Source: Hydrogenophaga sp. (GTDB lineage: Bacteria > Pseudomonadota > Gammaproteobacteria > Burkholderiales > Burkholderiaceae_C). From it: DNA of 64,000 bases. Shown here one piece after another: positions 13,780 through 53,581 of the stretch. The DNA is taken from assembly GCA_018333605.1 (NCBI GenBank), contig JAGXSV010000083.1, forward strand, positions 91,654-155,653, written 5' to 3'. Numbering within the stretch: the stretch's first letter is position 1; each line of letters opens with the position of its first letter. A program made the translations under genes and the position numbers. The notes under the pieces are model-generated. The model ran no database searches. It was given only the letters and a program-made list of their open reading frames with translations, and was not told the origin of the DNA.

Positions 13780-13810
13780 CCTGGTTTCCGCAACTGCGGT
13801 GTTTACAAGG
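13780..13810 (-). promoter_or_regulatory. SD-hairpin leader (76-aa gene)
   Basis: Outer arms CCTTGT / ACCAGG (one mismatch), inner CCGC-AGTT-GCGG, AAA before the SD arm. Hairpin A at 13820-13857 has two A.C-type mismatches. The terminator-like hairpin of the preceding gene is at 13854-13875. Confidence 0.7.
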
Positions 13811-13885
13811 CGATGTATTGGCTTTCTGCTGCACTGGAGTCAACGCAGTAGGAAGCCCGCTCCGTAAAGCGAGCTGGGGCTGGGC

Positions 13886-14371
13886 TCATCTGGAAGCCCG
13901 TCGAAACTCCCAAGGCGGTACCGCCTCGTGGTCACTCCAAACGCCCCTCTTTTCGTTCTTGGCCTGTTGCTGCAACTGGTACAGCGACTTGTCGGTGACA
14001 TACCGGTCATAGACCCAAGCCATGCCGGCTGAGACCATGTGGCTTTGTGCGTCTACGCCATCGCAGCGAACCCGCGCAAGCTTTCGGCCAAAGCGATCTT
14101 CGCCCTCAACATCGAGCGACGCGAACTTGCCAAAGCAAATCCGCGCCAACTCCTGCCTGGACTTGTTGCCAAAGGCCTGCTTGGACTCAGGTGCGTCAAT
14201 CTGGGACAGTCGCACCCTCACCTGTTGACGCTGCGGCGTAAGTAGCTTGAGCGTGTCTCCATCGCTGATTCCAACGACCTTGCCTGTCAACTCCCCGGCC
14301 ATGAGACCAGAGGCGAAGAGCAGGCAGAGGAGCGTCAATAGCGACTTGTCTTTGAGAATGGGTTTACGCAT
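13886..14371 (-). CDS. Thermonuclease-like (SNase) exported nuclease
   Basis: A 161-aa protein with an N-terminal signal peptide (SLLTLLCLLFASGLMAGEL) and an SNase domain: VVGISDGDTLKL (metal-binding Asp), VRVRLSQIDAPESKQ (Arg and Glu of the active site), EDRFGRKLARVRCDG (second Arg), and YRQL-like LYQLQQQAKNEKRGVW. All key residues are present, so it should cut DNA or RNA in the periplasm or medium. Such genes are common on conjugative elements. It follows the 98-aa gene by 4 bases and has no leader of its own. Confidence 0.85.
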   Translation of the reverse strand: MRKPILKDKSLLTLLCLLFASGLMAGELTGKVVGISDGDTLKLLTPQRQQVRVRLSQIDAPESKQAFGNKSRQELARICFGKFASLDVEGEDRFGRKLARVRCDGVDAQSHMVSAGMAWVYDRYVTDKSLYQLQQQAKNEKRGVWSDHEAVPPWEFRRASR

Positions 14372-14375
14372 GTCG

Positions 14376-14672
14376 TCAGGCAGCAAGAGCCAGTTGTTGC
14401 TTCGGAAGAAAGTCGGGCGCGACCTGCGGTTCAGTGCAGCCTATCAGCCGTTTGGTCCAGTTGCGCAAACGGGTGATGGTGCCCTGGTCCTCAAGATCGC
14501 GAACGTAGAACAAGAGGTCCTCTTCCAGCGACTCCATGCGCCGGTAAGCATGCACCTTCTTGGCGAGGTTGATCATGCTCTGGCGTCTGGCCCCTCCGGC
14601 CCGGACGTTGATCATGATGTTGCTGCAGAGGTTCTCTCGAAACGCTACAGCACTGAGTCGTGCCTTTCTCAT
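14376..14672 (-). CDS. Hypothetical protein, middle of a three-gene unit
   Basis: A 98-aa basic helical protein (MRKARLSAVAFRENL, MINLAKKVHAYRRMESLEEDL, TITRLRNWTKRLIG). Its ATG overlaps the stop of the upstream gene (ATGA at 14669-14672), indicating translational coupling. It is probably cytoplasmic; no domain was recognised. Confidence 0.6.
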   Translation of the reverse strand: MRKARLSAVAFRENLCSNIMINVRAGGARRQSMINLAKKVHAYRRMESLEEDLLFYVRDLEDQGTITRLRNWTKRLIGCTEPQVAPDFLPKQQLALAA

Positions 14673-15037
14673 GACAGCGACTCCGCCGGGGTACGCAACC
14701 CCAACTCGGCGATGGCATCCCTGTCCCAGCGGCGCAATACCCCTTTTGGATCTGCTTCGACCGCATGCGCCCAGCGACACGCAGCAGCCGATGATGCATC
14801 GTAGGCAATCTCCACCTCTCGGTAGACGCCAAACTCGTGCGGATTGCTGCAGATGCGAAGCCCTGCAAGGACATCCTCACACTCGGCGGGAACAGGATAG
14901 TGCCGGAGAATTTGGCGCCTGTATGCCGCGGTTTCACGCCGTGACCGGGTGGAATATTCATCGTCGCCGACCTGAGCGCACTGCTCTTCAGAAGGCGCCG
15001 GCCCGATCGACAGATAGTCAAGATTGAGTTTCAGCAT
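14669..15037 (-). CDS. Hypothetical protein with SD-hairpin leader
   Basis: A 122-aa acidic protein (LDYLSIGPAPSEEQCAQVGDD, YRRQILRHYPVPAECEDVLAGL). ATG at 15037 lies 4 bases after an AAGGAGT Shine-Dalgarno fully paired in the leader. A longer in-frame start would run through the hairpin. It leads a unit with the 98-aa gene and the nuclease. Confidence 0.65.
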   Translation of the reverse strand: MLKLNLDYLSIGPAPSEEQCAQVGDDEYSTRSRRETAAYRRQILRHYPVPAECEDVLAGLRICSNPHEFGVYREVEIAYDASSAAACRWAHAVEADPKGVLRRWDRDAIAELGLRTPAESLS

Positions 15038-15039
15038 GT

Positions 15040-15076
15040 GACTCCTTTTCCGCAGTTGCGGTGTTGATAAGGAGTC
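15040..15076 (-). promoter_or_regulatory. SD-hairpin leader, type example
   Basis: Outer arms GACTCCTT / AAGGAGTC (8 bp) contain the Shine-Dalgarno. They enclose ATCAACA, the inner hairpin CCGC-AACT-GCGG, and AA. The ATG follows 3 bases after the outer stem. Hairpin A at 15092-15126 pairs 12 of 14 positions, including a G.G mismatch. Confidence 0.85.
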
Positions 15077-15201
15077 GGTCACACAAAGTGACTTTTGACT
15101 GGGGGCGAAGGGCCCACACTCAAAAGCTTCCTGTGGTGATTCTGGGTATCCGTCACAACCAGAGCAACATGGAATGCTGCATTCAAACCGCCTTGATTTG
15201 G

Positions 15202-15240
15202 AAAAATGCTGGTCCTCCGCCCGATTCGGGACGGAGGACC
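15202..15240 (-). terminator. Intrinsic terminator of the DarB-like gene
   Basis: Minus-strand arms GGTCCTCCG / CGGAGGACC enclose CCCGA/TCGGG and are followed by AGCATTTTT. It lies 6 bases after the stop codon at 15246. Confidence 0.82.
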
Positions 15241-15245
15241 AAGCT

Positions 15246-18200
15246 TCAATCGGCCATTGCCAGTGCGCTCACGTCATCTGCATTGATCTCCAGCATGCTG
15301 TCGATCTCAGCCTGACGCTCAAGCAACAACTGCAGCTTCTTCTCGTACACAAAGGGGCAATCCGCCCGCTGTCGTTCAAGCAGCCGCCCCTGCAGTTCCA
15401 GCAGCCGCGCTTCCGTCTTTTGAGCCTGATGGGCGATCTCCTCTGCAAACCACGAAGGCTTGAAGTACTCGATCAGATCCTGCCGATTTCTCGGCAGGGC
15501 CCTAAGCCGCATGGTGAAGGCCTCACTCTGTAGCCGGACTTGTTCGACAGGACCAGCGTTCCACACTTCCTCGATTTCGATGACCACATTGCCCAATTGA
15601 AGGAGGACATGTGGCTCATGAGAACTTCGCCGGTCTCTGTAGTCCTTGAGGAACTTGCGAATTTTCTGCCCTCGTTTGAGAACAGCTTCTGCGCAATTTT
15701 CAAAGTCTGCGAATCGATTCCCGTCAACCTCGAACCCACGCCCATCGACCCTGGCACGCTCACCCAAGGATCGGACGTTCTGAAGATGATCTCGCGCTGA
15801 TGCGATGCCCATCTCCAGGTAGCTGACTTCGCGTCGGTTCTTGTACTGCTCATTGTCGTGCACCGACTTGAGCGCCTGCAGTCTTGCGACCTCGGCGTCC
15901 ACGCCTGCCTTTTCGATCACCATGGGATTCCCGCTGGCCAGCGCCTTGACCTCGGCAAACGACAGTGCTTGCATGGAGACATCCTCCACTGTGCGCACAC
16001 TACCGTTGTTCTCCATCACTTGCGCAATGAAATTTGCCTTGCGCTCCAGCCCCTGCCACATGTAGACGTCGAAAGTGGCCTCGGTCGCGTACCGGTAGAT
16101 CCACACCTCTTCGTTCATGTTGCCTTGCCGGATGATGCGTCCGTCGCGTTGTTCTACGTCTCGCGGCCTCCAGGGTGCATCCAGATCATGCTTGGCGACC
16201 AGACGGTCCTGCACATTCGTTCCGAACCCCATCAGCTCCGTTGACCCGATCAGGACCCGCTTCTTTCCCGCCCGCACCATGCGATGCAATTGGGCTTTCT
16301 GCTTGTCCGTCTTGAAGTCCTGTGCGAACGCGATTTCTTCTGCAGGTACACCCTTGGCGATCAGTGCCGCCTTGATGTGCTCATAGACCGAGAAGCTGTT
16401 GCCAGGCACACTCAAGTCACAGAACACCAGCTGCGTCAGACGTTCCTGAATGCTCTTCTCCCAGTGCCAGTAGACACGCTCGATGCATGCCTCGACCTTG
16501 GTACCCGGCTCTGGCACCAGCGTGGGGTTCACACATCGCATATCCAGCGCAGCCTTGCGGCCATCGTTGGTGATGCACAGCATGTTGTCCACTTCCGGTT
16601 TGACTTCACCCGTGCGGACCCGCTCGGCTCTTTCTACCAGCGACTGCACGAAGCGACGCTGTCCTTCTGTCGGTGGCACGGTGACCACCGTGTGGCTTCC
16701 CCCCACCAGCTTGGGCTCGGGAAGGTTCAGTTGCTTCTTGGTCCGGATCTCTGCGACTTCGCGGAAGATCAGCATCAGCTCGGGCACGTTCACAAAGCTT
16801 GCAAAGCGGGTGTGCAGTCGGTAGCCAGAGCCCTCGGGCTTGACTTCCACACACGTCACCTCACGCGCAAAGTTCGCCGCCCAGGCGTCAAAGCTGTCGA
16901 TGTGCAGTTCGCGCAGTCTTTCCTCCTGGAGGTAGGTCTGCATGATGAACATCTCGCCGATCGTGTTGGAGATCGGCGTCGCCGTCGCAAAGCACAGGCC
17001 GTAGCCGTCATTGCTCCTCTTCTCGAAGATCACCCGGGACTTCAGGTAAAGGTCCAGCGCCCGCGATGAGCAGCTGCTGGAAATGCCCGGGATGCGCTTC
17101 TTCTTCGTGAAGAAAAAGAGGTTCTTGAACAGATCGGCTTCGTCGACCAGCACGGTGTCGATGCCCAGCTGCTCGAACCCGAGAACCCCCGAGTCCTTCT
17201 CATTGCTGACCAGGCTCTCCAGCTTGGTTTCGACCATCTTCGCTGCCCGTGACGCTTCCCGCACCACGTTCTGATCAGTGACACCCATGACCGCTTCGCG
17301 TGCCTTGAGCTTCTGCTCGCTGATGAACTCCCTGACCACCGCTTCGCTCAGGCCGATGCGCCCAAAGGTCGCGTGCGTGACGATCACGCAGTCCCAGTCG
17401 TTCGTTGAGATGCGCATCAGCAACTCACGCCTTGCATCGCCCACCAGGTCGTCCTTGCTTGCAGCCAGGACCTTCGCGCGAGGGAACGCACGCAGGTACT
17501 CTCCAGCGAACGCCTCGAGCATGTGATTGGGCACAACCAGGATCGGCTTGTTGGCCACCCCCAGTCGCTTGAGCTCTTGCGCCACACAGATCTGGATCAG
17601 CGTCTTACCTCCTCCGACCGCCAGTGCGTACAGCGTGTTGCCGCTGACGATACCTCGCCAGATCGAGTCCTTCTGTGCATCGCGCAGCGTGATCGCCGCA
17701 CTCAACCCAGGGATGACCAGGTGGCTACCGTCATAGCTTCGGTTGACATGCCCGTTGTAGAGCATGTTGTATTTCTCCTGCAGCGCCGCGGACCTGTCCT
17801 TGTCGGACATCAGCCAGTCAACGAACGACTTCTCGATGGTGCGTGCCTTGTCTTGCGCGGCCAGCGATTCGTCCTTGTTGATCACGCGCCGTTCTTTTCC
17901 GTCTACTTCTATCGTGTCGTACACCTCCGGTGTTTGTTGGTTGAGCAAGTTCCCCAGGATGTCCCAGAAGTTCTTGCGAGATGTCCCCCACGTGGTGGTG
18001 AAGGTTTCGTGCTTTGGGTGACGGAAGCTGATCACCCATGAGGCGGTTTCGACCACTTGCGTGACCTCTACCGAGTAGTAGGAGAAGTTCGAATGCTCGC
18101 CCGAGAACCGACGTCCGATCTTGAACGTCTCTTCGAGCCACTGGCGCACGTGCTCCTCTCCGATCCAGGGAACGCCCAGCTTGATGCCGACCTGCTCCAA

Positions 18201-20219
18201 TGGAATGGCGGGAGGCACCACTGCCTTGAGCGCTGCCACGTTTCTTTGGAACGACGAGTCCCCCTTGACCGCGGCTTCGGCGATTCGGAGCTTTTCCCTC
18301 ACGGGTCCACTTAGGTACTCCATCGAATCGACCCACTTGCCGCTTCGCGGATCCTGGTAGATCCGTTCACTGGCCAGCAGCCGCTCGACCACCTCCTCTT
18401 CAGGCACACCCATCGCGCCGGCCATCCACGCTGTGTCCATCCGCCCGAAGCGGTTGTAGGACAGCGCAATCGCGTCTTCGATGGTGTCCGCGCTCTCCTT
18501 GAGCACAGCGTTGGACACGGTGCTTTCCTGGAAGATGTCAGCCTTCAGAGCAGCTTCCTGCTCGTCGTCCCAGATCTCCAGGGACCACAACAGCGGCGCG
18601 TGGCTGTCGTTGCGGTACAAGCGCCGGTTTCCAGCGTCCAGGAGAAAGCCATGCTGCTTGACGAAGGCATCGTAGAGCCGATTGAGCTCAGCGCGATACT
18701 GCTGGGCTGCGTTGCTCTTGACCGAATCGGCCTCCAGCAGCTGCAGCACGCAGTCCCTGATGCGTGTCATTCCCTCGATCCGTCGCAGCTGATGGGCTGG
18801 ATAGTTCTCGGTGTCGGACACGCCGTTTCTGCCATCGATAAGCATCAGGCGCCCCTCTTCGTCGAAGAAGAACCCGTGGGCTACGTAGCTCTTGAGCCCC
18901 TTGGGGTCTGCTACCCGTTGCACAGGACCATCGCTGACGTTGATGGTGCTATCGAAGGTCCCCTGAATGCATGCTTCCTCGCTGAGCGCCATCAGTCGCT
19001 TTTGCCAGTCATCGTGCGCTTCGACGCCCAGCCGCGTGCCCCAGCGATTGCTCGCGAGGCTGTACTTGCCGAGAACCCAATGGGGGTTCTTCACGAAAAG
19101 GGCGTTGACCTTCGAGGACTCAACCCAATACGTGTAGTTGGCGGTGCAGTATTCCCTTGCGGGGTTGGCCTTGTTGGGCAGTTCAAAGTTGTTGTCCCAG
19201 GGACCAACCTCGACTGACTTGTGTCGCCGCTGCAGGATGAGGACATCTGCAACAACGTCGGTGCCGCCGAGCCTTGCAAAGGCAGCCGAAGGCAGCCGGA
19301 TGGCCATCTTCAGCTCCGCGCGTGAGCACAGGTGGGCCAGGAACTCCCGCGAGCCGTTCTCCAGCGTTGAGCTGGTGGTGATCAGCGCCACAATCCCGCC
19401 CGGTCGCACCAGTTCGATGGACTTGATCAGGAAGTAGTTGTGGATGTTCAGCTTGAGCTTGTCCAGGCGGGCGTCGCTCACCCGGTAGTTGCCGAATGGT
19501 GCGTTGCCGATCACCAGATCAAAGCGGCCGTTTTCACGGCTGCCCAGATCCTGCAGCCCAATGGGCATGACGGTGGTCTGCCGGTCTGCATAGAGCTCGT
19601 CTGCCAGCGCTGCCGTGATGGGATCAGGGTCGATCATCACCACTCGGCTGTCCTGCCGCAAATCCTCGGGCATGGCACCAATAAAGTTGCCCGTTCCGCA
19701 GGAAGGATCCAGCAATCGGCCTCCTTTGAATCCCATGCGTTGGACGATTCTCCAAATGGCCCGCACCACGGATGGTTCCGTGTAGTAGGCCGAAAGCACC
19801 GATTCCAATGCACCGTCGTACTCTGCGGTCGTGAGCAATTCCCGAAGGCGCTGCTGTTCTTGCGGGTGCTTGGTGCTGGCTGCAAAGACATCAGAGAGAC
19901 CGCCCCAGCCGCTGTAGGCGACCATGGCACGCTTCTCTTCATCTGTGGCGACCATACGGCCCTCTGCACGCATGGTGCGAAGGGTTTCGATGGCCCTGAT
20001 GTTTGCTGCGATCTTGGAGCTTTCGGTGCTCAGGTGCGCCAGCATTTCATCCCGGAGGACGAAGAGATCGCGCGCTGGCTTGCGGGGTTTGACCACGCTA
20101 TCGACGGCCACCTGAATCTCACTCTTGCATGCCGGTGCCTCCTGGACGGGCCTTTCGAGAACTTCGAAGTCCAGAAAGTCGAACAAGGACGTTTGGCGTT
20201 CATCAATTTTTCGTTTCAT
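15246..20219 (-). CDS. DarB-like N6-adenine methylase/helicase fusion (antirestriction family)
   Basis: This 1657-aa protein combines two enzymes. The N-terminal half has an N6-methylase: LLDPSCGTGNFIGAMP (SAM-binding) near 168 and VIGNAPFGN in the NPPF catalytic position near 236. The C-terminal half is an SF2 helicase: AVGGGKTLIQICVA near 866, VLVDEADLFKN near 1025, FATATPISNTIGEMF, and DGRIIRQGNMNEEVWIYRYATEATFDVY at the end. Phage P1 DarB and large plasmid proteins of this build protect DNA in cis from type I restriction. The alanine in NAPF may alter or reduce methylation. It is the largest gene in the leader-controlled block. Confidence 0.85.
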   Translation of the reverse strand: MKRKIDERQTSLFDFLDFEVLERPVQEAPACKSEIQVAVDSVVKPRKPARDLFVLRDEMLAHLSTESSKIAANIRAIETLRTMRAEGRMVATDEEKRAMVAYSGWGGLSDVFAASTKHPQEQQRLRELLTTAEYDGALESVLSAYYTEPSVVRAIWRIVQRMGFKGGRLLDPSCGTGNFIGAMPEDLRQDSRVVMIDPDPITAALADELYADRQTTVMPIGLQDLGSRENGRFDLVIGNAPFGNYRVSDARLDKLKLNIHNYFLIKSIELVRPGGIVALITTSSTLENGSREFLAHLCSRAELKMAIRLPSAAFARLGGTDVVADVLILQRRHKSVEVGPWDNNFELPNKANPAREYCTANYTYWVESSKVNALFVKNPHWVLGKYSLASNRWGTRLGVEAHDDWQKRLMALSEEACIQGTFDSTINVSDGPVQRVADPKGLKSYVAHGFFFDEEGRLMLIDGRNGVSDTENYPAHQLRRIEGMTRIRDCVLQLLEADSVKSNAAQQYRAELNRLYDAFVKQHGFLLDAGNRRLYRNDSHAPLLWSLEIWDDEQEAALKADIFQESTVSNAVLKESADTIEDAIALSYNRFGRMDTAWMAGAMGVPEEEVVERLLASERIYQDPRSGKWVDSMEYLSGPVREKLRIAEAAVKGDSSFQRNVAALKAVVPPAIPLEQVGIKLGVPWIGEEHVRQWLEETFKIGRRFSGEHSNFSYYSVEVTQVVETASWVISFRHPKHETFTTTWGTSRKNFWDILGNLLNQQTPEVYDTIEVDGKERRVINKDESLAAQDKARTIEKSFVDWLMSDKDRSAALQEKYNMLYNGHVNRSYDGSHLVIPGLSAAITLRDAQKDSIWRGIVSGNTLYALAVGGGKTLIQICVAQELKRLGVANKPILVVPNHMLEAFAGEYLRAFPRAKVLAASKDDLVGDARRELLMRISTNDWDCVIVTHATFGRIGLSEAVVREFISEQKLKAREAVMGVTDQNVVREASRAAKMVETKLESLVSNEKDSGVLGFEQLGIDTVLVDEADLFKNLFFFTKKKRIPGISSSCSSRALDLYLKSRVIFEKRSNDGYGLCFATATPISNTIGEMFIMQTYLQEERLRELHIDSFDAWAANFAREVTCVEVKPEGSGYRLHTRFASFVNVPELMLIFREVAEIRTKKQLNLPEPKLVGGSHTVVTVPPTEGQRRFVQSLVERAERVRTGEVKPEVDNMLCITNDGRKAALDMRCVNPTLVPEPGTKVEACIERVYWHWEKSIQERLTQLVFCDLSVPGNSFSVYEHIKAALIAKGVPAEEIAFAQDFKTDKQKAQLHRMVRAGKKRVLIGSTELMGFGTNVQDRLVAKHDLDAPWRPRDVEQRDGRIIRQGNMNEEVWIYRYATEATFDVYMWQGLERKANFIAQVMENNGSVRTVEDVSMQALSFAEVKALASGNPMVIEKAGVDAEVARLQALKSVHDNEQYKNRREVSYLEMGIASARDHLQNVRSLGERARVDGRGFEVDGNRFADFENCAEAVLKRGQKIRKFLKDYRDRRSSHEPHVLLQLGNVVIEIEEVWNAGPVEQVRLQSEAFTMRLRALPRNRQDLIEYFKPSWFAEEIAHQAQKTEARLLELQGRLLERQRADCPFVYEKKLQLLLERQAEIDSMLEINADDVSALAMAD

Positions 20220-20220: not shown

Positions 20221-20260
20221 TCGTTTTCCTTTCCCGATGCCCGGGTGGTTGTGAAAACGA
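20221..20260 (-). promoter_or_regulatory. SD-hairpin leader (DarB-like gene)
   Basis: Outer arms TCGTTTTC / GAAAACGA (8 bp), CAACCA, inner CCCG-GGCAT-CGGG, AAAG. The arm sequence is quite unlike the usual CTCCTT, yet pairing is kept. Hairpin A at 20271-20302 has one central G.G mismatch. Confidence 0.8.
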
Positions 20261-21419: not shown

Positions 21420-21420
21420 T

Positions 21421-21456
21421 GCTTTCTCCATTCCCCATACGGGGTGTTCTGAAAGC
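21421..21456 (-). promoter_or_regulatory. SD-hairpin leader (PAPS-reductase-like gene)
   Basis: Outer arms GCTTTC / GAAAGC, AGAACA, inner CCCC-GTAT-GGGG, AATG. Hairpin A at 21468-21504 is a perfect 12-bp stem. Its upstream arm also pairs with the preceding AGTGGCCC in a TTCG-loop hairpin (21499-21518), so the two are mutually exclusive. Confidence 0.82.
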
Positions 21457-21548
21457 GATGGCGTAGAGCCACTCTCATGGAGTCGGTAACCACATGAGAG
21501 TGGCCCCGAAGGGCCACTAGATGAAGGCGTTCTCAAGCTCAGAATCGA

Positions 21549-22286: not shown

Positions 22287-22322
22287 TTGCCTTTCCCTCA
22301 TCCGAGGTGGTTGAAAAGGCAA
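22287..22322 (-). promoter_or_regulatory. SD-hairpin leader (93-aa gene)
   Basis: Outer arms TTGCCTTT / AAAGGCAA (8 bp), TCAACCA, inner CCTC-GGAT-GAGG, G. Both stems differ in sequence from the other copies but pair perfectly. A clear hairpin A was not found for this copy. Confidence 0.8.
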
Positions 22323-23261: not shown

Positions 23262-23302
23262 TCTCCTTGATGGTGCCGAATCCTCGGCGTTGATGAAGGA
23301 GA
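23262..23302 (-). promoter_or_regulatory. SD-hairpin leader (144-aa gene)
   Basis: Outer arms TCTCCTT / AAGGAGA, CATCAACG, inner CCGA-GGAT-TCGG. Hairpin A at 23311-23342 pairs 13 of 14 positions with one G.G mismatch. It abuts the terminator-like GCCTCC/GGAGGC hairpin (23340-23357). Confidence 0.82.
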
Positions 23303-24805: not shown

Positions 24806-24841
24806 CTCTCCTTTCTGCATCAGCAGTGATTGAAAGGAGAG
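24806..24841 (-). promoter_or_regulatory. SD-hairpin leader (C5 methylase)
   Basis: Outer arms CTCTCCTTT / AAAGGAGAG (9 bp), AATCA, inner CTGC-TGAT-GCAG. Hairpin A at 24853-24882 pairs 12 of 13 positions with one G.G mismatch. Confidence 0.85.
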
Positions 24842-28645: not shown

Positions 28646-28651
28646 GGCTCT

Positions 28652-39220: not shown

Positions 39221-39265
39221 TCTCCTTGAAAAGTCTTCCCCAGAACGGGGACTTGACGAAGGAGA
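39221..39265 (-). promoter_or_regulatory. SD-hairpin leader (clamp gene)
   Basis: Outer arms TCTCCTT / AAGGAGA, GTCAAGT, inner CCCC-GTTCT-GGGG extended by AAGT/ACTT. Hairpin A arms at 39275-39320 pair 10 of 11 positions with one G.G mismatch around a 24-base loop. Confidence 0.75.
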
Positions 39266-40478: not shown

Positions 40479-40513
40479 GTGATTCCTTCCCAAAAAAGGG
40501 GTTGATGAATCAC
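40479..40513 (-). promoter_or_regulatory. SD-hairpin leader (primase)
   Basis: Outer arms GTGATTC / GAATCAC, ATCAA, inner CCC/GGG round a T-rich loop. Hairpin A at 40524-40560 is a perfect 11-bp stem. Its upstream arm GGGCTTT can instead pair with AAAGCCC (40556-40573). Confidence 0.8.
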
Positions 40514-41168: not shown

Positions 41169-41214
41169 ATTTCTCCTGAGGTGATGTTGCCCTGCATCCA
41201 GGGCGGTTGGAAAT
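41169..41214 (-). promoter_or_regulatory. SD-hairpin leader (ssb)
   Basis: Outer arms ATTTC / GAAAT (5 bp), CAACC, inner GCCCTG-GATG-CAGGGC (6 bp). It has a longer inner stem and a weaker outer stem than most copies. Hairpin A at 41226-41255 pairs 10 bp with one bulged A. Confidence 0.7.
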
Positions 41215-42651: not shown

Positions 42652-42654
42652 ATT

Positions 42655-42701
42655 GATCGCTCCTATAGAAATGCCACAAATGCGGCGTTGAAAAGGCGAT
42701 C
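42655..42701 (-). promoter_or_regulatory. SD-hairpin leader (147-aa gene)
   Basis: Outer arms GATCGCC / GGAGCGATC (one bulge), TTTTCAACG, inner CCGCA-TT-TGTGG with a G.U pair. Hairpin A at 42714-42754 pairs 15 of 17. Its arm CAGCCTTTCC also pairs with AAGGCTG (42750-42767). Confidence 0.72.
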
Positions 42702-42795
42702 AAGGCATTTACGGCCTTTCCAGAGCACTCGCGCGTGGAGTGCACGGGAAAGGCTGCAAGCAGCCTTCGGTACCTGCAGGTCCGTTCTGAGTTTT

Positions 42796-42971: not shown

Positions 42972-43010
42972 TGGCCTTTCGATACCGAAGAGTCGGAGTT
43001 GAGAAGACCA
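42972..43010 (-). promoter_or_regulatory. SD-hairpin leader (57-aa membrane protein)
   Basis: Outer arms TGGTCTT / AAGGCCA with one U.G pair, TCAACT, inner CCGA-CTCT-TCGG. Hairpin A at 43020-43057 is a 17-bp stem with one G.U. It overlaps the GGCTGCC/GGCAGCC hairpin at 43055-43072. Confidence 0.8.
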
Positions 43011-45519: not shown

Positions 45520-45560
45520 CTCCTGAATGTCGTTTCCCCAGTCGGGGCCGAATAAAGGAG
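45520..45560 (-). promoter_or_regulatory. SD-hairpin leader (sbcC)
   Basis: Outer arms CTCCT / AGGAG, spacer TTATTCGG (lacks the CAAC motif), inner CCCC-GACT-GGGG. Hairpin A at 45576-45607 pairs 11 of 12 positions with one G.G mismatch. Confidence 0.68.
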
Positions 45561-47955: not shown

Positions 47956-47994
47956 CCTTTCTGATGTGCCACAGTTGTGGCGTGTTGAGAAAGG
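47956..47994 (-). promoter_or_regulatory. SD-hairpin leader (DUF932 gene)
   Basis: Outer arms CCTTTC / GAAAGG, TCAACAC, inner GCCAC-AACT-GTGGC. Hairpin A at 48004-48042 pairs 17 of 18 positions with a single C.C mismatch. The TACG-loop hairpin GCTCACC/GGTGGGC overlaps its base (48040-48057). Confidence 0.82.
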
Positions 47995-48063: not shown

Positions 48064-49305
48064 TTAGGCGGAAATCGCCGTTGGTGTTGGCTGAGTCGAG
48101 GTTCGTGACTTCAACACGGTCTCGACGATGTCGTCGACAGAACTGGCCTGCAGAAGCTCCAGACGGTGTTGGAGTTCTTCAACGCCTGGTGTCTCAGTCA
48201 CAGAGGCCCAGGTTGCCAGCTTCTCCCCCAAAGGTTGGGTGGATATCCCTTGGGCGCGCTGACGCTGCACCGTGAGGGTCTTGCCTTCGATTTGAATGTC
48301 AGCTGCGCTTTCCAGAATAGCCCTGATGGCAGCCCGGTCCACATTGTGCCTGGATTCTTCATCAATGCAATACCGCAAGCGGACAAAAGCCCCCTCACAC
48401 TCGGAAACTCGCTTTCGCAGGTCCTCAAGGTCTGGGGCTCCGTCATAGATCAGGTCGACGTTTTTTCGGGATGGAGTGGCGTTGAGGCCTAGCCGCACTG
48501 CGCCGTCGGCAAACGACCAGCACAGCCAGTACTTGTCGCCCTCCTCACCATGATGGAAGCGGCCGATGGAGCCAGCGTAGGCAACCAGCTGGGTAAACCC
48601 ATGGACGTCTTGGCTCCAACTTTGCTGCTTGTGGATGTGCCCAAGTGCGACGGCGTCGGCCATAGCTGCAAAGAGAGACCCAAGCCCCAGCTCATGATCA
48701 GTCCCGGCCATAGGAACACCTGATTCGCTGATGCTGTTGAGCACCGTTCCGTGGCTCAGGACCATCGATGGTGTTCCTTGTTGGCGGTACTTGGAATTGA
48801 CAGGACCCCATCGTTCCAGAACGCCAGCGATGATCTGCCGCGCATGGACCGCCGCCTCATCGACGCGCCCTTCAACAATCGACGCAATGTCAGCCTTGTT
48901 CAGCGTCGGCAGTGCGTGCAGCACCAGTCGGCAATCCATGCCCTCCTTCAGAGGCTCAAATCTGTCCGTCAGAGCGAACGAAGCAATGCGATCCGCAACG
49001 GTCACTGGATACCTGCCACCAACCATTGCCAGCAACCGCAGGAACCCCGGTGGCTCATGGCTGAATGTGCCTTGCAGCATCAAGACTGGGCAGTGATCGC
49101 TCAGCCGCTTGATCTGCGTTGCCAGCGCTCGTGTGGCGGGCGCATGGGCATCCAGGGCATGGTCTGTGCTATCGCCTGTGATGATGACGCAGTCGACGTT
49201 GGAGTCGATGGCTGCTGTCACCGCCGCGGAAAAGCAACGGTCGGACTCCTGGAGGTTTCCTGCACTGTAGTGAAGGTCACTCATTTGTGCGACTTTCAAA
49301 GTCAT
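48064..49305 (-). CDS. sbcD: SbcD/Mre11-type nuclease
   Basis: A 413-aa metallophosphoesterase: motif I MSDLHYSAG, motif II ITGDSTDH, motif III altered to QGTFSHE where GNHD/E is usual, then SHGTVLNS and LGHIHKQQ. The C-terminal half is the capping and SbcC-binding region. The lost Asn of motif III may change specificity, but phage and plasmid relatives share GTxSH-type variants. It has its own SD-hairpin leader. Confidence 0.83.
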   Translation of the reverse strand: MTLKVAQMSDLHYSAGNLQESDRCFSAAVTAAIDSNVDCVIITGDSTDHALDAHAPATRALATQIKRLSDHCPVLMLQGTFSHEPPGFLRLLAMVGGRYPVTVADRIASFALTDRFEPLKEGMDCRLVLHALPTLNKADIASIVEGRVDEAAVHARQIIAGVLERWGPVNSKYRQQGTPSMVLSHGTVLNSISESGVPMAGTDHELGLGSLFAAMADAVALGHIHKQQSWSQDVHGFTQLVAYAGSIGRFHHGEEGDKYWLCWSFADGAVRLGLNATPSRKNVDLIYDGAPDLEDLRKRVSECEGAFVRLRYCIDEESRHNVDRAAIRAILESAADIQIEGKTLTVQRQRAQGISTQPLGEKLATWASVTETPGVEELQHRLELLQASSVDDIVETVLKSRTSTQPTPTAISA

Positions 49306-49312: not shown

Positions 49313-49351
49313 TCTCCTTTTCGGCATCAAGCCGGTGTGTTCAAAAGGAGA
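49313..49351 (-). promoter_or_regulatory. SD-hairpin leader (sbcD)
   Basis: Outer arms TCTCCTTTT / AAAAGGAGA (9 bp), GAACACA, inner CGGC-TTGAT-GCCG. Hairpin A at 49362-49393 pairs 13 of 14 positions with one A.C mismatch. It abuts the terminator-like CCCGC-TTCG-GCGGG of the preceding gene (49392-49405). Confidence 0.85.
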
Positions 49352-49416
49352 TGAGCCGGTAGGCTTTCTGCTGGGTTGACCCAGTAGAAAACCCGCCGAA
49401 GCGGGCCGAAAGCGGT

Positions 49417-51144
49417 TCAAGCGAACAGGGGTTCCTGCGTTGGATTGAGCGTCGCGCACCGTTGCCGGAGGCTGGTGACGTCTTGCTGGCCATGCAGACC
49501 CATCCGTTGAAGCCACTGAGATCGTCGGATCATGTTGTCAATGCCACTGCTCTGGCCACTGCCTAACGTCACCACGCCGTAGCGCAAGTAGATGCTGGCA
49601 GCTGACGTCCAGTCGACATCCTCTCGGTGATAGCGACGTATGGCTTCCTCCGCCTCGAAGTCCAGGAACATGCAGGCACCCTCCTCGTCCACCGTGAACT
49701 CAGGCAACTCGTCCAGTTCAAGGAAAACATTGCCTTGAGTACCCATGCGAAGATTTGGCCCACAGCTTTCGCTGAACATTTCCCAAACCGGATCCCTGAG
49801 TCCGGGCGGCTGCAACGCTGAGGAGCCCTCGTCCCAATCTCTTCCGACATAGATCCGGCCCACTTCAGGAACCGGGCTTGGCCGAACCGGATTGATCAGA
49901 ACGGGGGCTTCCTGCCTGTTGCCACGCTCGTGTTCGAGATAGACCTTGATCGCATGGAACGGCGGATGCCAGGCGCGTACCGACCAGTAGAAGTCGATGG
50001 CAAAAAGCTCCCTCACTCCAATGGCGTTGACCCTCACGGGCGACCCCATCGCGTTGGCCTGGTCCTGTGCCGTCAGCAGGTAGCGCAAGAGCCGCTCACA
50101 CATCTGGGGACTGAACTGGTCGGCCTTGACGGGCATGTAGCCGTCCTCGTCGATTGTTCGCCCCAGGTAGTTGCGCAGGCTCCAGTCCCACTGCGAGTTG
50201 ACGACGAAGTTGCGAAAGCGCAGAAGCGGCTCCAGGTACCCGTACTGAGCCGGGTCGCTCTGGATCATGTTTTCCACACTGGTGTCGTTCTGGACGGCAC
50301 CGCAGACCCAGCACCCAGAGCGGGCACCGCAAGGGCTGCCCTGTCCCTGGCGCATGTCGGCAACCACCACGCATTCCCCGCCTGCAGCTGCCGAGTAGAA
50401 CTCGATCAGGTCGGCAAAGTCTGAGTAGCTTTCATGCAGGCCCGCTGCGCACTCTCCCAGGTATTCCCACACCTGATCCGTGCTCCAGTGGAGCACAGGG
50501 CTGAGGCGAGCGTCGCCGTCCGGGCCAAACCACAGACCATCGGCCCGTTCCTTTCGCTTGGCTGTGTTGATCATTCTCGCCTGGGACTCCGATGCGCGTG
50601 TACCTATCACAGTGACCAGTGGCTTTTCGTAGCCCGTCGACAGCGATCGCACCTGGCGGCTCACGCGCTGACTAACGGCGATCTTCCAGTCAGTTGTGCA
50701 GTCTCTTCTACCAACCGGGAATGGGGGCAGCGCTCTCCCGCCAATGATGCGTGGAGCGTACGAGGCCGACAAGGTTGGTCTACCGACAAACACATGCAGG
50801 ACAATCCCGTGCTTGTTGGCGTAGACCTTCATCTTCTGAAGCTCATGATCAGCCAGTGATCGCACCACAGGATTCTCCACTCCAGTGTCCGCACTGCACA
50901 CGAAGATGGGCGGCGTCTTGCTGCCTGCCTCAATTACTTCACGTGCTGCAGTCAGGACTAGGTTGGCGCAAGCGCTTGAGTCCTTACCTCCGCTGAACTG
51001 AAGTTGGAGCGGGTGTCCTTCGTCCATGATCCGTCTCAATACGTCAACGGCAGCCTTGGCCGAGCCTGCTTGATCGATTGAACGTTCGACACATTCGTCA
51101 TGGATCATCCCGACATCAGAGAACAGGTCGTCACTGTGCATCAT
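49417..51144 (-). CDS. DndC-like PP-loop protein
   Basis: A 575-aa protein with PP-loop QFSGGKDSSACANL near 51, SADTGVENPVV, TVIGTRASESQARM, and a cysteine cluster PCGARSGCWVCGAVQND near 275 that closely resembles the DndC 4Fe-4S region. DndC adenylates DNA for phosphorothioate modification, but no DndB, D or E is present. The role may be related or reused. The N-terminus overlaps the upstream stop by 14 bases, and two ATGs are adjacent. Confidence 0.72.
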   Translation of the reverse strand: MMHSDDLFSDVGMIHDECVERSIDQAGSAKAAVDVLRRIMDEGHPLQLQFSGGKDSSACANLVLTAAREVIEAGSKTPPIFVCSADTGVENPVVRSLADHELQKMKVYANKHGIVLHVFVGRPTLSASYAPRIIGGRALPPFPVGRRDCTTDWKIAVSQRVSRQVRSLSTGYEKPLVTVIGTRASESQARMINTAKRKERADGLWFGPDGDARLSPVLHWSTDQVWEYLGECAAGLHESYSDFADLIEFYSAAAGGECVVVADMRQGQGSPCGARSGCWVCGAVQNDTSVENMIQSDPAQYGYLEPLLRFRNFVVNSQWDWSLRNYLGRTIDEDGYMPVKADQFSPQMCERLLRYLLTAQDQANAMGSPVRVNAIGVRELFAIDFYWSVRAWHPPFHAIKVYLEHERGNRQEAPVLINPVRPSPVPEVGRIYVGRDWDEGSSALQPPGLRDPVWEMFSESCGPNLRMGTQGNVFLELDELPEFTVDEEGACMFLDFEAEEAIRRYHREDVDWTSAASIYLRYGVVTLGSGQSSGIDNMIRRSQWLQRMGLHGQQDVTSLRQRCATLNPTQEPLFA

Positions 51145-51382
51145 TGGCCACCTCGCTCGCTCGGCCAATGAACATGGTCCCTGCCTGGCCAGACCGGAGC
51201 CGAACGCGGTAGATGCCCTTGCCCAGTCGAGACAAGGTGAACCCGCTGTTACTGACCCTGCCTGCAGTTCGCGCGTTGGCTCTCCAGCTGCGAAGCAACG
51301 TGGCTGCGCGCTTCCTTGTCATCGCTCGGTCAGCAGTGGCCGGCTCGTCATTCCATGCCCAGAAGAACTTCGTTTGTTTCAT
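51131..51382 (-). CDS. Small basic hypothetical protein with SD-hairpin leader
   Basis: An 83-aa basic protein (MKQTKFFWAWNDEPATADRAMTR, AATLLRSWRANARTAGRV, GFTLSRLGKGIYRVRLRSG). Its stop overlaps the start of the DndC-like gene, so the pair is coupled and shares one leader. No domain was recognised. Confidence 0.58.
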   Translation of the reverse strand: MKQTKFFWAWNDEPATADRAMTRKRAATLLRSWRANARTAGRVSNSGFTLSRLGKGIYRVRLRSGQAGTMFIGRASEVANDAQ

Positions 51383-51387: not shown

Positions 51388-51428
51388 GTCCTTTTCGATG
51401 TGCCACAGATATGGCGTTGTAAAAGGAC
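51388..51428 (-). promoter_or_regulatory. SD-hairpin leader with overlapping alternative helices
   Basis: Outer arms GTCCTTTT / AAAAGGAC (8 bp), ACAAC, inner GCCATA-TC-TGTGGC. Hairpin A (51426-51464; arms GACTTGCC / GGCAAGTC) shares three bases with the anti-SD arm. Its other arm also pairs with GCAAGTC upstream (51458-51481), so three helices compete in a chain. Confidence 0.82.
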
Positions 51429-51493: not shown

Positions 51494-51775
51494 TTAGGTA
51501 GCCATCAGCTGATCCATGAACAGATCCGTTTGGTCGATGTTGACCCAGGCGGGGACCCCGTGCACATCGAGTCCGAGACTCAGGTCAATCCAGTATCCGA
51601 ACCCGTGATCACCACCTAGGCGCTCTTTGCAGACCTTCTCCAGTGCGTGGGAATTGACCTGGCGGGAAATGAAATACCTCGCTGAGTCGCTTTCCCTGAC
51701 CAGGTAGTAGCCCATGCGCTGACCGGGTTCCACTTGGCTGGAGACGGATGCACCATCTTCGAACTTGAGGTACAT
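51494..51775 (-). CDS. Hypothetical protein with SD-hairpin leader
   Basis: A 93-aa protein (MYLKFEDGASVSSQVEPGQRMGYYLV, SARYFISRQVNSHALEKVC, WIDLSLGLDVHGVPAWVNIDQTD). It is beta-rich and probably globular. ATG at 51775 lies 8 bases after GGAG; longer starts run through the leader. Confidence 0.58.
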   Translation of the reverse strand: MYLKFEDGASVSSQVEPGQRMGYYLVRESDSARYFISRQVNSHALEKVCKERLGGDHGFGYWIDLSLGLDVHGVPAWVNIDQTDLFMDQLMAT

Positions 51776-51784: not shown

Positions 51785-51816
51785 CTCCTTTCCTGCAAAC
51801 GCAGAGTTGAAAGGAG
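51785..51816 (-). promoter_or_regulatory. SD-hairpin leader (93-aa gene)
   Basis: Outer arms CTCCTTTC / GAAAGGAG (8 bp), AACT, inner CTGC-GTTT-GCAG, the most compact copy (32 bases). Hairpin A at 51828-51863 pairs 13 of 15. GCCCACT-TACG-AGTGGGC abuts it at 51862-51879. Confidence 0.85.
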
Positions 51817-51945: not shown

Positions 51946-52467
51946 CTACTGCACAATGGGTGCGATTCGACCACGACCAATGAGCATGACGCTCTGGCCT
52001 CGTTTGAAGCGGATGCCATCCACGGTGCTTTGGGCAACTGCGATGGTTTCTCCAGATGGCTGGAGCTTCACCACGATTTCCTGTCCCGGCACAGTGGCGA
52101 CCGCCGCCTTTCCTGCGACGGCTCCCCCCAGTGCGCCTATGCTGGCGACCAATGCCCGGACCTTCGAACTCGCTTCGGCCAGTGTCGCCACTCCGTATCC
52201 CGCGACACCCCCAACCCCCGCACCCAACAAGGAAGCACTGCCTCCTGGCTGGTCGATGAGCTCGATGTCACGAACAGACAGAATGGTGGCAAACCTCACG
52301 GCCTGCGGGCTCTGAGCATGACTGTAGGCACTCGATGAGCCCTGCTTGGTCATCAACGGTGATCCGCCTGTGGCCGAACACCCGCCGAGAAACAGTGCTG
52401 CCAGCAGGCCGATACCCAGAAGAGTCCATCGCACGATGGGTTCGATGTGTTTCTTGAGCTTGTCCAT
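51946..52467 (-). CDS. Glycine-zipper lipoprotein (SlyB/Pcp-like)
   Basis: A 173-aa protein with an N-terminal hydrophobic segment ending in the lipobox-like ALFLGGC, then a glycine-zipper (LLGAGVGGVAGYGVATLAEA and IGALGGAVAGKAAVATV) and a C-terminal beta part (EIVVKLQPSGETIAVAQ, QSVMLIGRGRIAPIVQ). This is the SlyB-type outer-membrane lipoprotein plan. On a plasmid it could strengthen the envelope or act in surface exclusion; the latter is a guess. Confidence 0.72.
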   Translation of the reverse strand: MDKLKKHIEPIVRWTLLGIGLLAALFLGGCSATGGSPLMTKQGSSSAYSHAQSPQAVRFATILSVRDIELIDQPGGSASLLGAGVGGVAGYGVATLAEASSKVRALVASIGALGGAVAGKAAVATVPGQEIVVKLQPSGETIAVAQSTVDGIRFKRGQSVMLIGRGRIAPIVQ

Positions 52468-52472
52468 GAGGA

Positions 52473-52512
52473 CTCCTTTCATTCCCGCAGTCGCGGTGGT
52501 TGACGAAAGGAG
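52473..52512 (-). promoter_or_regulatory. SD-hairpin leader (glycine-zipper lipoprotein)
   Basis: Outer arms CTCCTTTC / GAAAGGAG (8 bp), GTCAACCA, inner CCGC-GACT-GCGG. Hairpin A at 52521-52554 pairs 13 of 14 with one A.C mismatch. Its arm GGTGCATGAAT also pairs with ATTCATTGCACC upstream (one bulge), an exclusive alternative. Confidence 0.85.
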
Positions 52513-52647
52513 CGATGAAGGCATGAATGGGCCCTTCAGAGGGCCTATTCATGCACCCACCGGTGCAATGAATGGTCAAGGCGTCAGCCAAGAAGGCTGA
52601 GCTCACCAATTGAATCGCGTCGCAGCGCTAAGGCTGGTTTTGCCACC

Positions 52648-53073
52648 TTACGTGCTGGCCTTGTCGGGATGTCGCTGGACTTCGACACCGCGCATCAACT
52701 GGGCCATGGATCTGGCTCGATCGATGATTTCTTGGCCACCCGCCTCTTTGGCCGTAGACGGTGCATAGTGATCCGCGAAACCTGCAATTCGCGCCAACAG
52801 GTCTCCTGCGCATTCAACTTGTACCTCTTCGGATTGCACGTGCGTCGCTCCAGCCCCTCGACGATCGAGTGCCTGTGCGGCCGCAATAGCCAGCATCGCT
52901 CGATGCGTCCGCCGGTTTGCCGCAGCCAATTCCTCCAGGGCCCAGCAACGCAGCGAGCTGGCAGCTGAACGGCCTGGGTCCAACCGGATATCGATGCTCA
53001 CGCCTTGAAAGGTAATGCCTGCATATGCGCTTGCGGCGCACACGACAGTCTTTACGTTGATGTCCGAGATCAT
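52648..53073 (-). CDS. Hypothetical protein with SD-hairpin leader
   Basis: A 141-aa protein, Ala-rich and helical (AASAYAGITFQGVSIDIRLD, LEELAAANRRTHRAMLAIAAAQALDRRG, EIIDRARSMAQLMRG). No domain was recognised. ATG at 53073 follows the GAAGGGC arm by 6 bases. Confidence 0.58.
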   Translation of the reverse strand: MISDINVKTVVCAASAYAGITFQGVSIDIRLDPGRSAASSLRCWALEELAAANRRTHRAMLAIAAAQALDRRGAGATHVQSEEVQVECAGDLLARIAGFADHYAPSTAKEAGGQEIIDRARSMAQLMRGVEVQRHPDKAST

Positions 53074-53079
53074 GGATTT

Positions 53080-53122
53080 GCCCTTCGTCAAGTGCCGCAT
53101 GTAGCGGCGGTTGTAGAAAGGC
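53080..53122 (-). promoter_or_regulatory. SD-hairpin leader (141-aa gene)
   Basis: Outer arms GCCTTTC / GAAGGGC with one U.G pair, TACAACC, inner GCCGC-TACAT-GCGGC. Hairpin A at 53133-53164 is a perfect 12-bp stem and overlaps AGCGG/CCGCT (53162-53176). Confidence 0.82.
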
Positions 53123-53191
53123 GGGCCGGTGGGCTTACCAGTGCCCCCATACGCACTGGTAAGCGGACAAGCCGCTCTTTTGGTGCCATTG

Positions 53192-53542
53192 TCATGAGAC
53201 CGACTGCGGCTCCTCCTGGACAGGGGTTTCAGACCAAAACGGATCGGGGTTCCAGCCCTGATCCGTCTCCACTTCGATCACCAGTCCGCGTTGTTGGTCT
53301 TGTCTCGCTGCGTACTGCTTGAACTCGCCACATGCCACGCCTGCTTTGGCAATGGCCACCATCACGATTTTCTCGGCTTCCGCTTCCAGGCGTCTCGCCT
53401 CGTGCTCCTCACGCTCGATATTGCAGTCACCGTTCACAGACAGCTCTCCTGCCCTTTTACGGTGCTGTTTCGCTCTGTCCATCAACACACGGACAGAGGG
53501 ATCCCTTCTGGCGAACGCCTCTGCCTCATCGTACCAACTCAT
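53192..53542 (-). CDS. Hypothetical acidic helical protein, first gene of the leftward block
   Basis: A 116-aa protein (MSWYDEAEAFARRDPSVRVLMD, EREEHEARRLEAEAEKIVMVAIAKAG) with heptad-like charge pattern and a Pro/Glu-rich tail. ATG at 53542 follows AAAGGAG by 8 bases. It is the rightmost gene of the leader-controlled block, next to the 53.6-54.1 kb non-coding region. Confidence 0.58.
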   Translation of the reverse strand: MSWYDEAEAFARRDPSVRVLMDRAKQHRKRAGELSVNGDCNIEREEHEARRLEAEAEKIVMVAIAKAGVACGEFKQYAARQDQQRGLVIEVETDQGWNPDPFWSETPVQEEPQSVS

Positions 53543-53546
53543 CCTG

Positions 53547-53581
53547 CATCTCCTTTCACTTCTCCAGTGGGCGAAAAATGG
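53547..53581 (-). promoter_or_regulatory. Divergent SD-hairpin leader (116-aa gene)
   Basis: The inner hairpin CACT-GGAGA-AGTG is present, but the outer stem is weak (TTT/AAA and CAT/ATG) and the CAAC motif is absent. Hairpin A at 53593-53625 is a 14-bp stem with two G.U pairs. It is an outlying family member. Confidence 0.5.

What the first reader, a model, noticed from the sequence alone, without database searches (positions are those of the whole stretch)
13780..53581. A family of about 20 SD-sequestering hairpin leaders controls the maintenance/establishment block
Twenty minus-strand genes (starts at 13768, 15037, 20219, 21419, 22282, 23254, 24801, 39214, 40475, 41164, 42651, 42969, 45513, 47943, 49305, 51382, 51775, 52467, 53073, 53542) share one 5' architecture. 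An anti-SD arm is followed by a spacer usually ending in CAAC or GAACA, an inner CCNN/NNGG-type hairpin with a 4-5 base loop often ending in T, an A-rich link, the SD arm, and the start codon 2-10 bases later. Arms covary: GACTCCTT/AAGGAGTC, TCGTTTTC/GAAAACGA, GCTTTC/GAAAGC, TTGCCTTT/AAAGGCAA, GTGATTC/GAATCAC, GTCCTTTT/AAAAGGAC; inner stems CCGC/GCGG, CCCC/GGGG, CCTC/GAGG, CCGA/TCGG, CTGC/GCAG. Changing sequence with conserved pairing is direct evidence of structure in RNA or single-stranded DNA. The genes include SSB, clamp, primase, SbcCD, methylases and unknowns; pilus and secretion genes have none. Inference: one plasmid- or host-encoded factor, or the folding state of the transcript, sets translation of the whole set.
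Basis: partly seen in the sequence, partly recalled or inferred. Interest (0 to 1): 0.95.

Follow-up and report, generated by a model that had tools for sequence, protein, structure and literature searches.

The report
Plasmid-wide hairpin lids on gene starts
A likely conjugative plasmid carries the same nested hairpin pattern just in front of some 35 of its genes, all on one strand, where it is predicted to cover the ribosome-binding site, and related plasmids keep the pairing while the letters change, so it likely acts as a shared switch on making the plasmid's own maintenance proteins.

Summary
At the 20 named starts a nested hairpin lies over the Shine-Dalgarno (SD) sequence: 16 of 20 stretches fold with z <= -2 and a covariance model finds 15 of 20. 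Nineteen more model matches lie on the same contig outside the window. In 75 matches from nine plasmids or contigs 95.3% of cells pair, all 11 pairs show double changes, and slid partners pair at 44-61%. The inner loop ends in U in 74 of 75. In relatives 51 of 54 matches lie on one strand, mostly on one contig per genome; genome samples give only isolated matches. Rfam has no match. Several orthologous genes keep the layout with other arms, others lack it. SSB (41164) and 53542 are not convincing members. Best reading: a translational lid, likely opened by an unidentified factor that reads the inner hairpin, within an intergenic module that has a further upstream hairpin. No alternative upstream helix for the anti-SD arm was found, nor a known RNA regulator. 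Effect on translation and factor are inferred; no experiment was possible.

The parts
13777..13813 (-). nested SD hairpin before ORF 13538-13768 (76 aa, unknown)
   Evidence: R2 match 21.0 bits; z -2.24; one mismatch in the outer stem
15040..15076 (-). nested SD hairpin before ORF 14669-15037 (122 aa, unknown)
   Evidence: R2 40.3 bits; z -2.58
20221..20260 (-). nested SD hairpin before ORF 15246-20219 (1657 aa, N6-methylase/helicase)
   Evidence: R2 39.0 bits; z -2.75; Pfam Eco57I; orthologues in pPNAP01 and P1-6 show no such hairpin by eye
21420..21457 (-). nested SD hairpin before ORF 20379-21419 (PAPS-reductase/DndC-like)
   Evidence: R2 31.1 bits; z -2.03
22287..22322 (-). nested SD hairpin before ORF 22001-22282 (93 aa, unknown)
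   Evidence: R2 36.8 bits; z -3.50
23262..23302 (-). nested SD hairpin before ORF 22820-23254 (144 aa, unknown)
   Evidence: R2 34.7 bits; z -2.38
24806..24841 (-). nested SD hairpin before ORF 23377-24801 (C5 DNA methylase)
   Evidence: R2 35.7 bits; z -2.76
39221..39265 (-). nested SD hairpin before ORF 38045-39214 (DNA polymerase III clamp)
   Evidence: R2 18.0 bits, weak; z -1.72; orthologues in L036 and L037 have the layout, those in L021 and L031 do not by eye
40479..40513 (-). variant SD hairpin (3-bp inner stem) before ORF 39402-40475 (primase, Toprim)
   Evidence: no R2 match; 7 of 7 outer pairs; z -1.70; orthologues in L021 and L031 pair with other arms
41169..41214 (-). claimed leader of SSB (41164): weak, judged not a member
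   Evidence: no R2 match; z -1.26; SSB orthologues lack it by eye
42653..42703 (-). long-link variant before ORF 42208-42651 (147 aa, conserved unknown)
   Evidence: no R2 match; 8 of 8 outer pairs; z -3.23; orthologue in L036 matched at E 1.6
42972..43010 (-). nested SD hairpin before ORF 42796-42969 (57 aa)
   Evidence: R2 28.7 bits; z -2.09
45520..45560 (-). degenerate nested hairpin before ORF 43078-45513 (SbcC-like)
   Evidence: no R2 match here; leaders of the orthologues in L037, L038 and L067 match at E 0.05-0.2; z -2.36
47956..47994 (-). nested SD hairpin before the DUF932 gene (start 47943)
   Evidence: R2 31.0 bits; z -3.16; layout seen by eye in four relatives (L021, L031, L036, L037)
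49315..49349 (-). nested SD hairpin before ORF 48064-49305 (SbcD-like)
   Evidence: R2 27.2 bits; z -3.84
49361..49394 (-). example of upstream hairpin A of the same module (15-base arms, one mismatch allowed, 4-base loop)
   Evidence: best stem in this region exceeds the 95th percentile of shuffles at 32 of 40 sites
51389..51427 (-). nested SD hairpin before ORF 51131-51382 (83 aa)
   Evidence: R2 25.4 bits; z -4.57
51786..51815 (-). nested SD hairpin before ORF 51494-51775 (93 aa)
   Evidence: R2 23.4 bits; z -2.76
52474..52511 (-). nested SD hairpin before ORF 51946-52467 (173 aa)
   Evidence: R2 43.7 bits, best match; z -3.39
53080..53122 (-). nested SD hairpin before ORF 52648-53073 (141 aa)
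   Evidence: R2 34.1 bits; z -6.42
53551..53582 (-). claimed leader at 53542: weak, no AAC spacer, judged not a member
   Evidence: no R2 match; z -1.46

Best explanation
It is a family of nested hairpin sequences, some 35 on one contig, whose outer stem is predicted to pair with the Shine-Dalgarno sequence of the gene that follows, and it likely holds translation off until a still unknown factor that would recognise the inner hairpin opens it. Shown by sequence: the position directly upstream of start codons, one strand of the contig, the outer stem over the SD, pairing kept while letters change (also between orthologous genes), and nearly fixed unpaired letters (an A in the spacer, a U closing the inner loop) in an element whose stems are free to vary. 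Inferred: that the fold forms in the mRNA, that it lowers translation, and that one protein or RNA reads the fixed letters and lifts the lid across the set. The fixed unpaired letters are the main reason for a recognition step; the mostly perfect outer stems and the lack of an alternative upstream partner are the reason why opening likely needs a factor and not refolding alone.
For: Pairing: 99.6% of cells in the 21-site hand alignment, 96.7% in 45 and 95.3% in 75 model-aligned matches; 0 of 500 shuffles reach the percentage paired or the covariation score in any of the three; slid partners pair at 44-66%. Loci not used in training give matches down to E 2.3e-5, and 51 of 54 lie on the strand of the SbcC gene. 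Of 42 matches outside C83, 33 are followed within 15 nt by ATG/GTG of an ORF of at least 40 codons, against 496 of 2400 random positions. DUF932, primase and SbcC leaders show the layout with other arms in several relatives. Loop-final U in 74 of 75, spacer A in 70 of 75. No upstream alternative partner for the anti-SD arm within 60 nt (35 sites, mean z 0.06, none below -1.65). Outer stems: 33 of 35 hand-written sites have standard pairs only. The genes that carry it are replication, repair, modification and unknown genes; the T4SS stretch has no match.
Against: No trans factor was found: no ProQ, Com or CsrA match in the genome bin, which is 62% complete. No expression data exist here. Maintenance genes off by default would be odd unless the factor is normally present. 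The model alignments are fitted to the structure and the first alignment was made by hand. About 10% of other ORF starts pass the loose structural rule, and 5 of the 20 named sites are missed by the model. Orthologues do not always carry it: by eye it is missing before the methylase in pPNAP01 and P1-6, the clamp in the same two, SSB in all 15 listed and several SbcD rows. The count of pair types in the 75-row set is reached by 42 of 500 shuffles. The strand bias of wobble pairs is weak once the outermost pair is counted (21 G-T against 15 A-C).
Confidence: 0.5

Rival explanations
1. An intrinsic lid with no dedicated factor: the hairpin sets low, gene-tuned translation and shields each start on a long transcript; a simple thermometer would be a special case.
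For: SD-covering stems alone can do this (general knowledge); no regulator family was found; the outer stems differ in length and strength between genes.
Against: It does not explain the nearly fixed spacer A and loop-final U or the constant inner hairpin. Energies of -12.5 to -22.5 kcal/mol for the 53-nt stretches look too stable for a thermometer (inference).
Confidence: 0.25
2. The structure acts in single-stranded DNA during or after conjugative entry, like ssDNA promoters or the pLS20 establishment sequences.
For: Matches lie on one strand of a conjugative-type replicon (TraD, MobH-like relaxase, VirB4/10/11-like genes). pLS20 EGeRS1 regions are repeated, hairpin-rich and lack a strong promoter (passages of PMC8708921). 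Sigma-70-like sites are not enriched here. A-C cells at the outermost pair (12) blur the strand signal.
Against: The hairpin is tied to the SD and start codon, with gaps of 0-12 nt. At internal pairs G-T outnumbers A-C 19 to 3.
Confidence: 0.12
3. The intergenic module is mainly for RNA processing, stability or read-through (upstream hairpin A cut or protecting ends), and the SD hairpin is the new 5' end of each processed mRNA.
For: Stop-to-start gaps are 110-160 nt at 20 of 40 sites and 100-210 nt at 28 of 40 (crude gene calls). A strong extra hairpin lies upstream at 32 of 40 sites, and the motif [ACG]AAAGC[CT] at 19 of 40 C83 sites and 28 of 42 elsewhere, against 3% and 7% in shuffles.
Against: Terminator-like sites are little or not above chance (23 vs 18.5; 13 vs 12.8). 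It does not explain why an anti-SD arm matches each SD. No NusG-family paralogue was found, though the bin lacks even the normal one.
Confidence: 0.08
4. A dispersed repeat copied along with genes, kept by duplication and without regulatory effect.
For: Many unrelated genes share the module; a repeated start-associated element of unknown function is known from mycobacteriophages (passages of PMC3203893).
Against: Arms differ from site to site with compensating changes, and orthologous genes keep the fold with other letters; a neutral repeat would decay.
Confidence: 0.05

Closest known systems
Start-associated sequences (SAS/ESAS) of cluster K mycobacteriophages (passages of PMC3203893 read)
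   Same: Repeated element at the translation start of a subset of non-structural genes of one mobile element (11-19 copies), overlapping the SD; about half carry an extra inverted repeat upstream; function unknown.
   Different: SAS is a conserved 13-bp sequence. Here the letters vary and the fold is kept, with an anti-SD arm and an inner hairpin.
Phage Mu Com / mom translation control (abstract start, passages of PMC6483171)
   Same: A structure over the initiation region; a small zinc-finger protein binds the RNA and melts it, turning translation on.
   Different: One target gene there, some 35 here; no Com-family match found.
pLS20 establishment gene regulatory sequences EGeRS1 (passages of PMC8708921 read)
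   Same: Repeated, hairpin-rich region ending at the RBS of establishment operons of a conjugative plasmid, without a strong promoter.
   Different: 400-600 bp and five copies on pLS20; here a shorter module before single genes, with a stem over the SD.
ssDNA promoters (Frpo) of F-type leading regions (PMC11541004 seen in the search listing only; rest recalled)
   Same: Repeated folded elements upstream of leading-region genes.
   Different: Those are promoters in single-stranded DNA; here the fold is tied to the SD.
SD-sequestering riboswitches and RNA thermometers (recalled)
   Same: An anti-SD arm hides the ribosome-binding site.
   Different: No Rfam match; no alternative upstream helix; many unrelated genes per replicon.

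Membership tests
Any Rfam 15 family | match at the gathering score | tested here: not met
   0 matches in the window; with E up to 5 only two sub-threshold hits, E 2.8 and 3.3, both at 37620-37698 and at none of the leaders
SAS/ESAS | conserved 13-bp sequence at the start | tested here: not met
   every outer-stem pair column varies
SAS/ESAS | restricted to a subset of genes of one mobile element, at the RBS | tested here: met
   no match in the T4SS stretch; 33 of 42 outside matches precede a start
Com/mom | Com-family zinc-finger protein in the element | tested here: inconclusive
   PF10122: 0 matches in the own genome, contig C83 included; a diverged protein could be missed and the bin is 62% complete
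Com/mom | protein binding melts the SD hairpin | not testable with these tools
   needs binding and reporter assays
Riboswitch or attenuator with alternative helices | anti-SD arm has an alternative upstream partner | tested here: not met
   35 sites, 60 nt upstream, mean z 0.06, none below -1.65
RNA thermometer | melts in the host temperature range | not testable with these tools
   only static energies at 37 C
ssDNA promoter (Frpo-type) | sigma-70 promoter elements made by the folded strand | tested here: inconclusive
   only a linear consensus scan was run on two stretches: 1 found vs 3.6 expected, 3 vs 4.0
EGeRS1 (pLS20) | 400-600 bp conserved region before establishment operons | tested here: not met
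   gaps before leader genes are 100-210 nt at 28 of 40 sites
Integron attC | attC boxes with IntI | not tested
   considered only in thought

The most novel reading that the evidence does not exclude
A plasmid-wide translational regulon: one plasmid-borne or host RNA-binding factor reads a shared inner hairpin (AAC spacer, loop-final U) on some 35 mRNAs and opens their SD lids together, so that a conjugative plasmid switches its whole maintenance programme after transcription, a layer of plasmid control for which the searches showed no counterpart.
Probability: 0.4. Interest if true: 0.92.

Novelty: new variant of a known kind. Interest (0 to 1): 0.76.

Why it matters
Plasmid gene control is mostly described at promoters (general knowledge). 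A structured leader repeated before some 35 genes of one replicon, with relatives on plasmids or contigs of Polaromonas, Hydrogenophaga, Giesbergeria, Noviherbaspirillum and Polynucleobacter, would be a translation-level programme for plasmid maintenance. It gives an immediate test system (swap the leader, find the factor), a way to group unknown plasmid genes by shared control, and an RNA family that Rfam 15 does not match.

Tried and rejected
Megablast of 25 kb against 72,556 plasmids gave no match, so relatives were found by protein. Unguided MAFFT plus RNAalifold on 28 sites recovers only the inner stem, since spacer and link lengths vary. Of six whole plasmids searched with R2, pPNAP01 and the P1-6 plasmid have matches at E <= 1 (4 and 10, all on one strand); pSTJ2, Piscinibacter, JS666 and the Cupriavidus plasmid have none (stricter filters). 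The Paraburkholderia/Burkholderia loci with an SbcC relative show nothing convincing: one match at E 1.7 in L042 that precedes no start, one at E 0.42 in genome G427. Single matches at E <= 0.01 in G553 and G779 precede only 24- and 27-codon ORFs; G334 was seen only as an alignment; at E <= 1 G334 and G779 have two matches each. Attenuator logic: no support. ProQ, Com, CsrA and NusG searches of the own genome were empty; the missing NusG shows that this bin cannot exclude host factors. A regex for small zinc-ribbon-like ORFs gave candidates; one (C83 21036-21446) has no relative in the compared plasmids, the others were not followed. Looking through 213 crude ORF calls for a conserved RNA-binding protein gave none evident.
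Full report
What was checked. The window is bases 91654-155653 of contig C83 (155,653 bases) in a 2.74 Mb, 62% complete genome bin. All 20 named coordinates are start codons on the minus strand. Folding 53 nt per site without guidance gives z-scores from -1.26 to -6.42, and 16 of 20 are <= -2.0. A fixed rule (outer stem >= 6 bp near the start, inner stem >= 4 bp) is met at 15 of 20, against 17 of 500 dinucleotide shuffles of the same stretches and 165 of 1681 other ATG-ORF starts on the contig.

Layout. I wrote 36 sites by hand as parts; 35 matched the sequence. In these, outer stems are 5-9 bp (33 of 35 with standard pairs only), the spacer before the inner stem is 5-12 nt and usually holds AAC, the inner stem is 3-5 bp with a loop of 4-6, the link is 0-12 nt, and the gap to the start is 0-12 nt. 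All 35 loops end in T. The 21 of 36 sites with regular geometry were aligned. In that alignment 99.6% of cells pair and all 11 pairs have double changes; sliding the partners by 1-3 columns gives 46-66%. This alignment is hand-fitted, so model-based ones follow.

Models. R1 was built from those 21 sites, R2 from 20 natural, model-aligned matches. R2 on C83 plus a 49-kb piece of pPNAP01 gives 45 matches at E <= 10: 15 of the 20 named sites, 19 further minus-strand sites at C83 1-24.4 kb, one at C83 77.7 kb, three mirror matches on the other strand, and 7 in pPNAP01 on its gene strand. In the whole own genome 22 matches at E <= 0.1 all lie on C83, minus strand, and none of 39 relatives has a match. 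If C83 were circular the two stretches of leaders would form one block; its ends do not overlap, so this is not shown.

Relatives. Protein searches lead to plasmid pPNAP01 of Polaromonas naphthalenivorans CJ2 and a plasmid of Polaromonas sp. P1-6. pPNAP01 is typed conjugative, MOBH, MPF_T. A scan of genome contigs with the SbcC alignment gave 43 loci. R2 over 45 loci (these 43 plus the P1-6 and Cupriavidus pieces) gives 54 matches at E <= 5, 51 on the strand of the SbcC gene, the best at E 2.3e-5 in Hydrogenophaga. They cluster in seven loci: P1-6, Hydrogenophaga (2), Giesbergeria (2), Noviherbaspirillum and Polynucleobacter; four other loci have one match each. In whole genomes, at E <= 0.5, the matches sit on one contig and one strand (12 of 12, 8 of 8, 5 of 5, 3 of 3, 2 of 2; Noviherbaspirillum 3 and 1 on two contigs; one Paraburkholderia genome a single match at E 0.42; one genome none). 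Genome samples give little else: 2 of 399 genomes drawn from the order and 3 of 398 drawn from the phylum have a match at E <= 0.01, the own one included in both, and the other three are single matches.

Covariation beyond this plasmid. Seventy-five matches at E <= 0.35 from 11 loci, nine plasmids or contigs (rows not filtered; one mirror match and some doubtful rows are in), pair in 95.3% of 810 cells, against 70.6% in shuffles and 44-61% when slid; all 11 pairs have double changes, which 13 of 500 shuffles also reach, and the number of pair types is reached by 42 of 500; no shuffle reaches the pairing or the covariation score. The loop-final base is U in 74 of 75 and the spacer A is present in 70 of 75. 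Orthologous genes give the cleanest case, read by eye. DUF932 leaders pair CCTTTCT/AGAAAGG here, TCCTTC/GAAGGA in Hydrogenophaga NFH-34, ACCTTT/AAAGGT in pPNAP01 and CACCTTT/AAAGGTG in P1-6. Primase leaders pair GTGATTC/GAATCAC here, GGTTTTC/GGAAACC (one T-G pair) in pPNAP01 and TGGTTT/AAACCA in P1-6. Not every orthologue has it: the methylase and the clamp lack it in pPNAP01 and P1-6, several SbcD rows lack it, and none of the 15 listed SSB orthologues shows it, so SSB is best dropped from the set.

Which strand, which level. Of 42 matches outside C83, 33 are followed within 15 nt by ATG/GTG of an ORF of at least 40 codons; for random positions it is 496 of 2400. At internal pairs G-T outnumbers A-C 19 to 3, as expected if the sense strand folds; with the outermost pair it is 21 to 15, and the model itself tolerates G-U. 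So the tie to the SD and the start codon is the stronger argument for mRNA and translation.

The wider module. Stop-to-start gaps before leader genes are 110-160 nt at 20 of 40 sites and 100-210 nt at 28 of 40, by crude gene calls. Upstream lies another hairpin (A): the best stem of that region exceeds the 95th percentile of shuffles at 32 of 40 sites. A motif [ACG]AAAGC[CT] occurs at 19 of 40 C83 sites (3% in shuffles) and at 28 of 42 sites elsewhere (7% in shuffles). In the two stretches scanned, sigma-70-like promoters are not enriched (1 vs 3.6, 3 vs 4.0) and terminator-like sites little or not (23 vs 18.5, 13 vs 12.8). What A does is open; processing or read-through are possible.

Mechanism. 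Committed reading: an off-state lid opened by a factor that reads the inner hairpin. Shown: position, pairing, nearly fixed unpaired letters. Inferred: folding in the cell, repression, the factor. Against refolding logic: the anti-SD arm has no alternative partner in the 60 nt upstream (35 sites, mean z 0.06). No ProQ, Com, CsrA or NusG family member was found in the own genome, but the bin lacks even a normal NusG, so absence says little about host factors. Rivals are an intrinsic lid, a single-stranded-DNA role, a processing module and a neutral repeat.

Known or new. Rfam 15 has no match. The closest kinds are the mycobacteriophage start-associated sequences (passages of PMC3203893), Mu Com/mom (passages of PMC6483171) and the pLS20 establishment sequences (passages of PMC8708921). 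My searches for a description of this element (open-access library, listings only) showed none; most subscription papers are not covered. It is a new RNA-type family that would act in a known manner (SD sequestration) on an unusual scale: new variant of a known kind.

Noticed in passing
window 45670-47943 (minus strand): The DUF932 gene is split by an insertion of about 1.2 kb that encodes a transposase with rve and HTH_21 domains (46748-47617, plus strand; IS3-type by recall); unbroken copies exist on related plasmids.
   Followed up: partly
window 27332-36850 and 57755-61409 (minus strand): SXT-type TraD coupling protein and a MobH-like relaxase (below its curated cut-off), with VirB4-, VirB10- and VirB11/TrbB-like genes (below cut-off): a conjugative-type replicon.
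   Followed up: partly
window 54142-54747 (plus strand): A 201-aa protein with relatives in all five compared plasmids and no Pfam or NCBIfam family; its P1-6 relative is annotated as a TIGR03761 integrating-conjugative-element protein. It lies next to the leader block, on the other strand.
   Followed up: partly
window 37620-37698 (minus strand): Two sub-threshold Rfam hits overlap here (ctRNA_p42d and suhB, E 2.8 and 3.3); perhaps only a terminator-like hairpin.
   Followed up: no
L037 5814-5848, 9855-9891, 16351-16385: Similar repeats of at least about 130 bases in the Hydrogenophaga NFH-34 contig hold a hairpin that R2 matches weakly, without a start codon directly after it.
   Followed up: no
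L187 (pPNAP01 151000-200000): A BREX cluster (pglW, pglX, pglZ, brxD) and a Zorya gene are annotated close to the leader block of pPNAP01.
   Followed up: no
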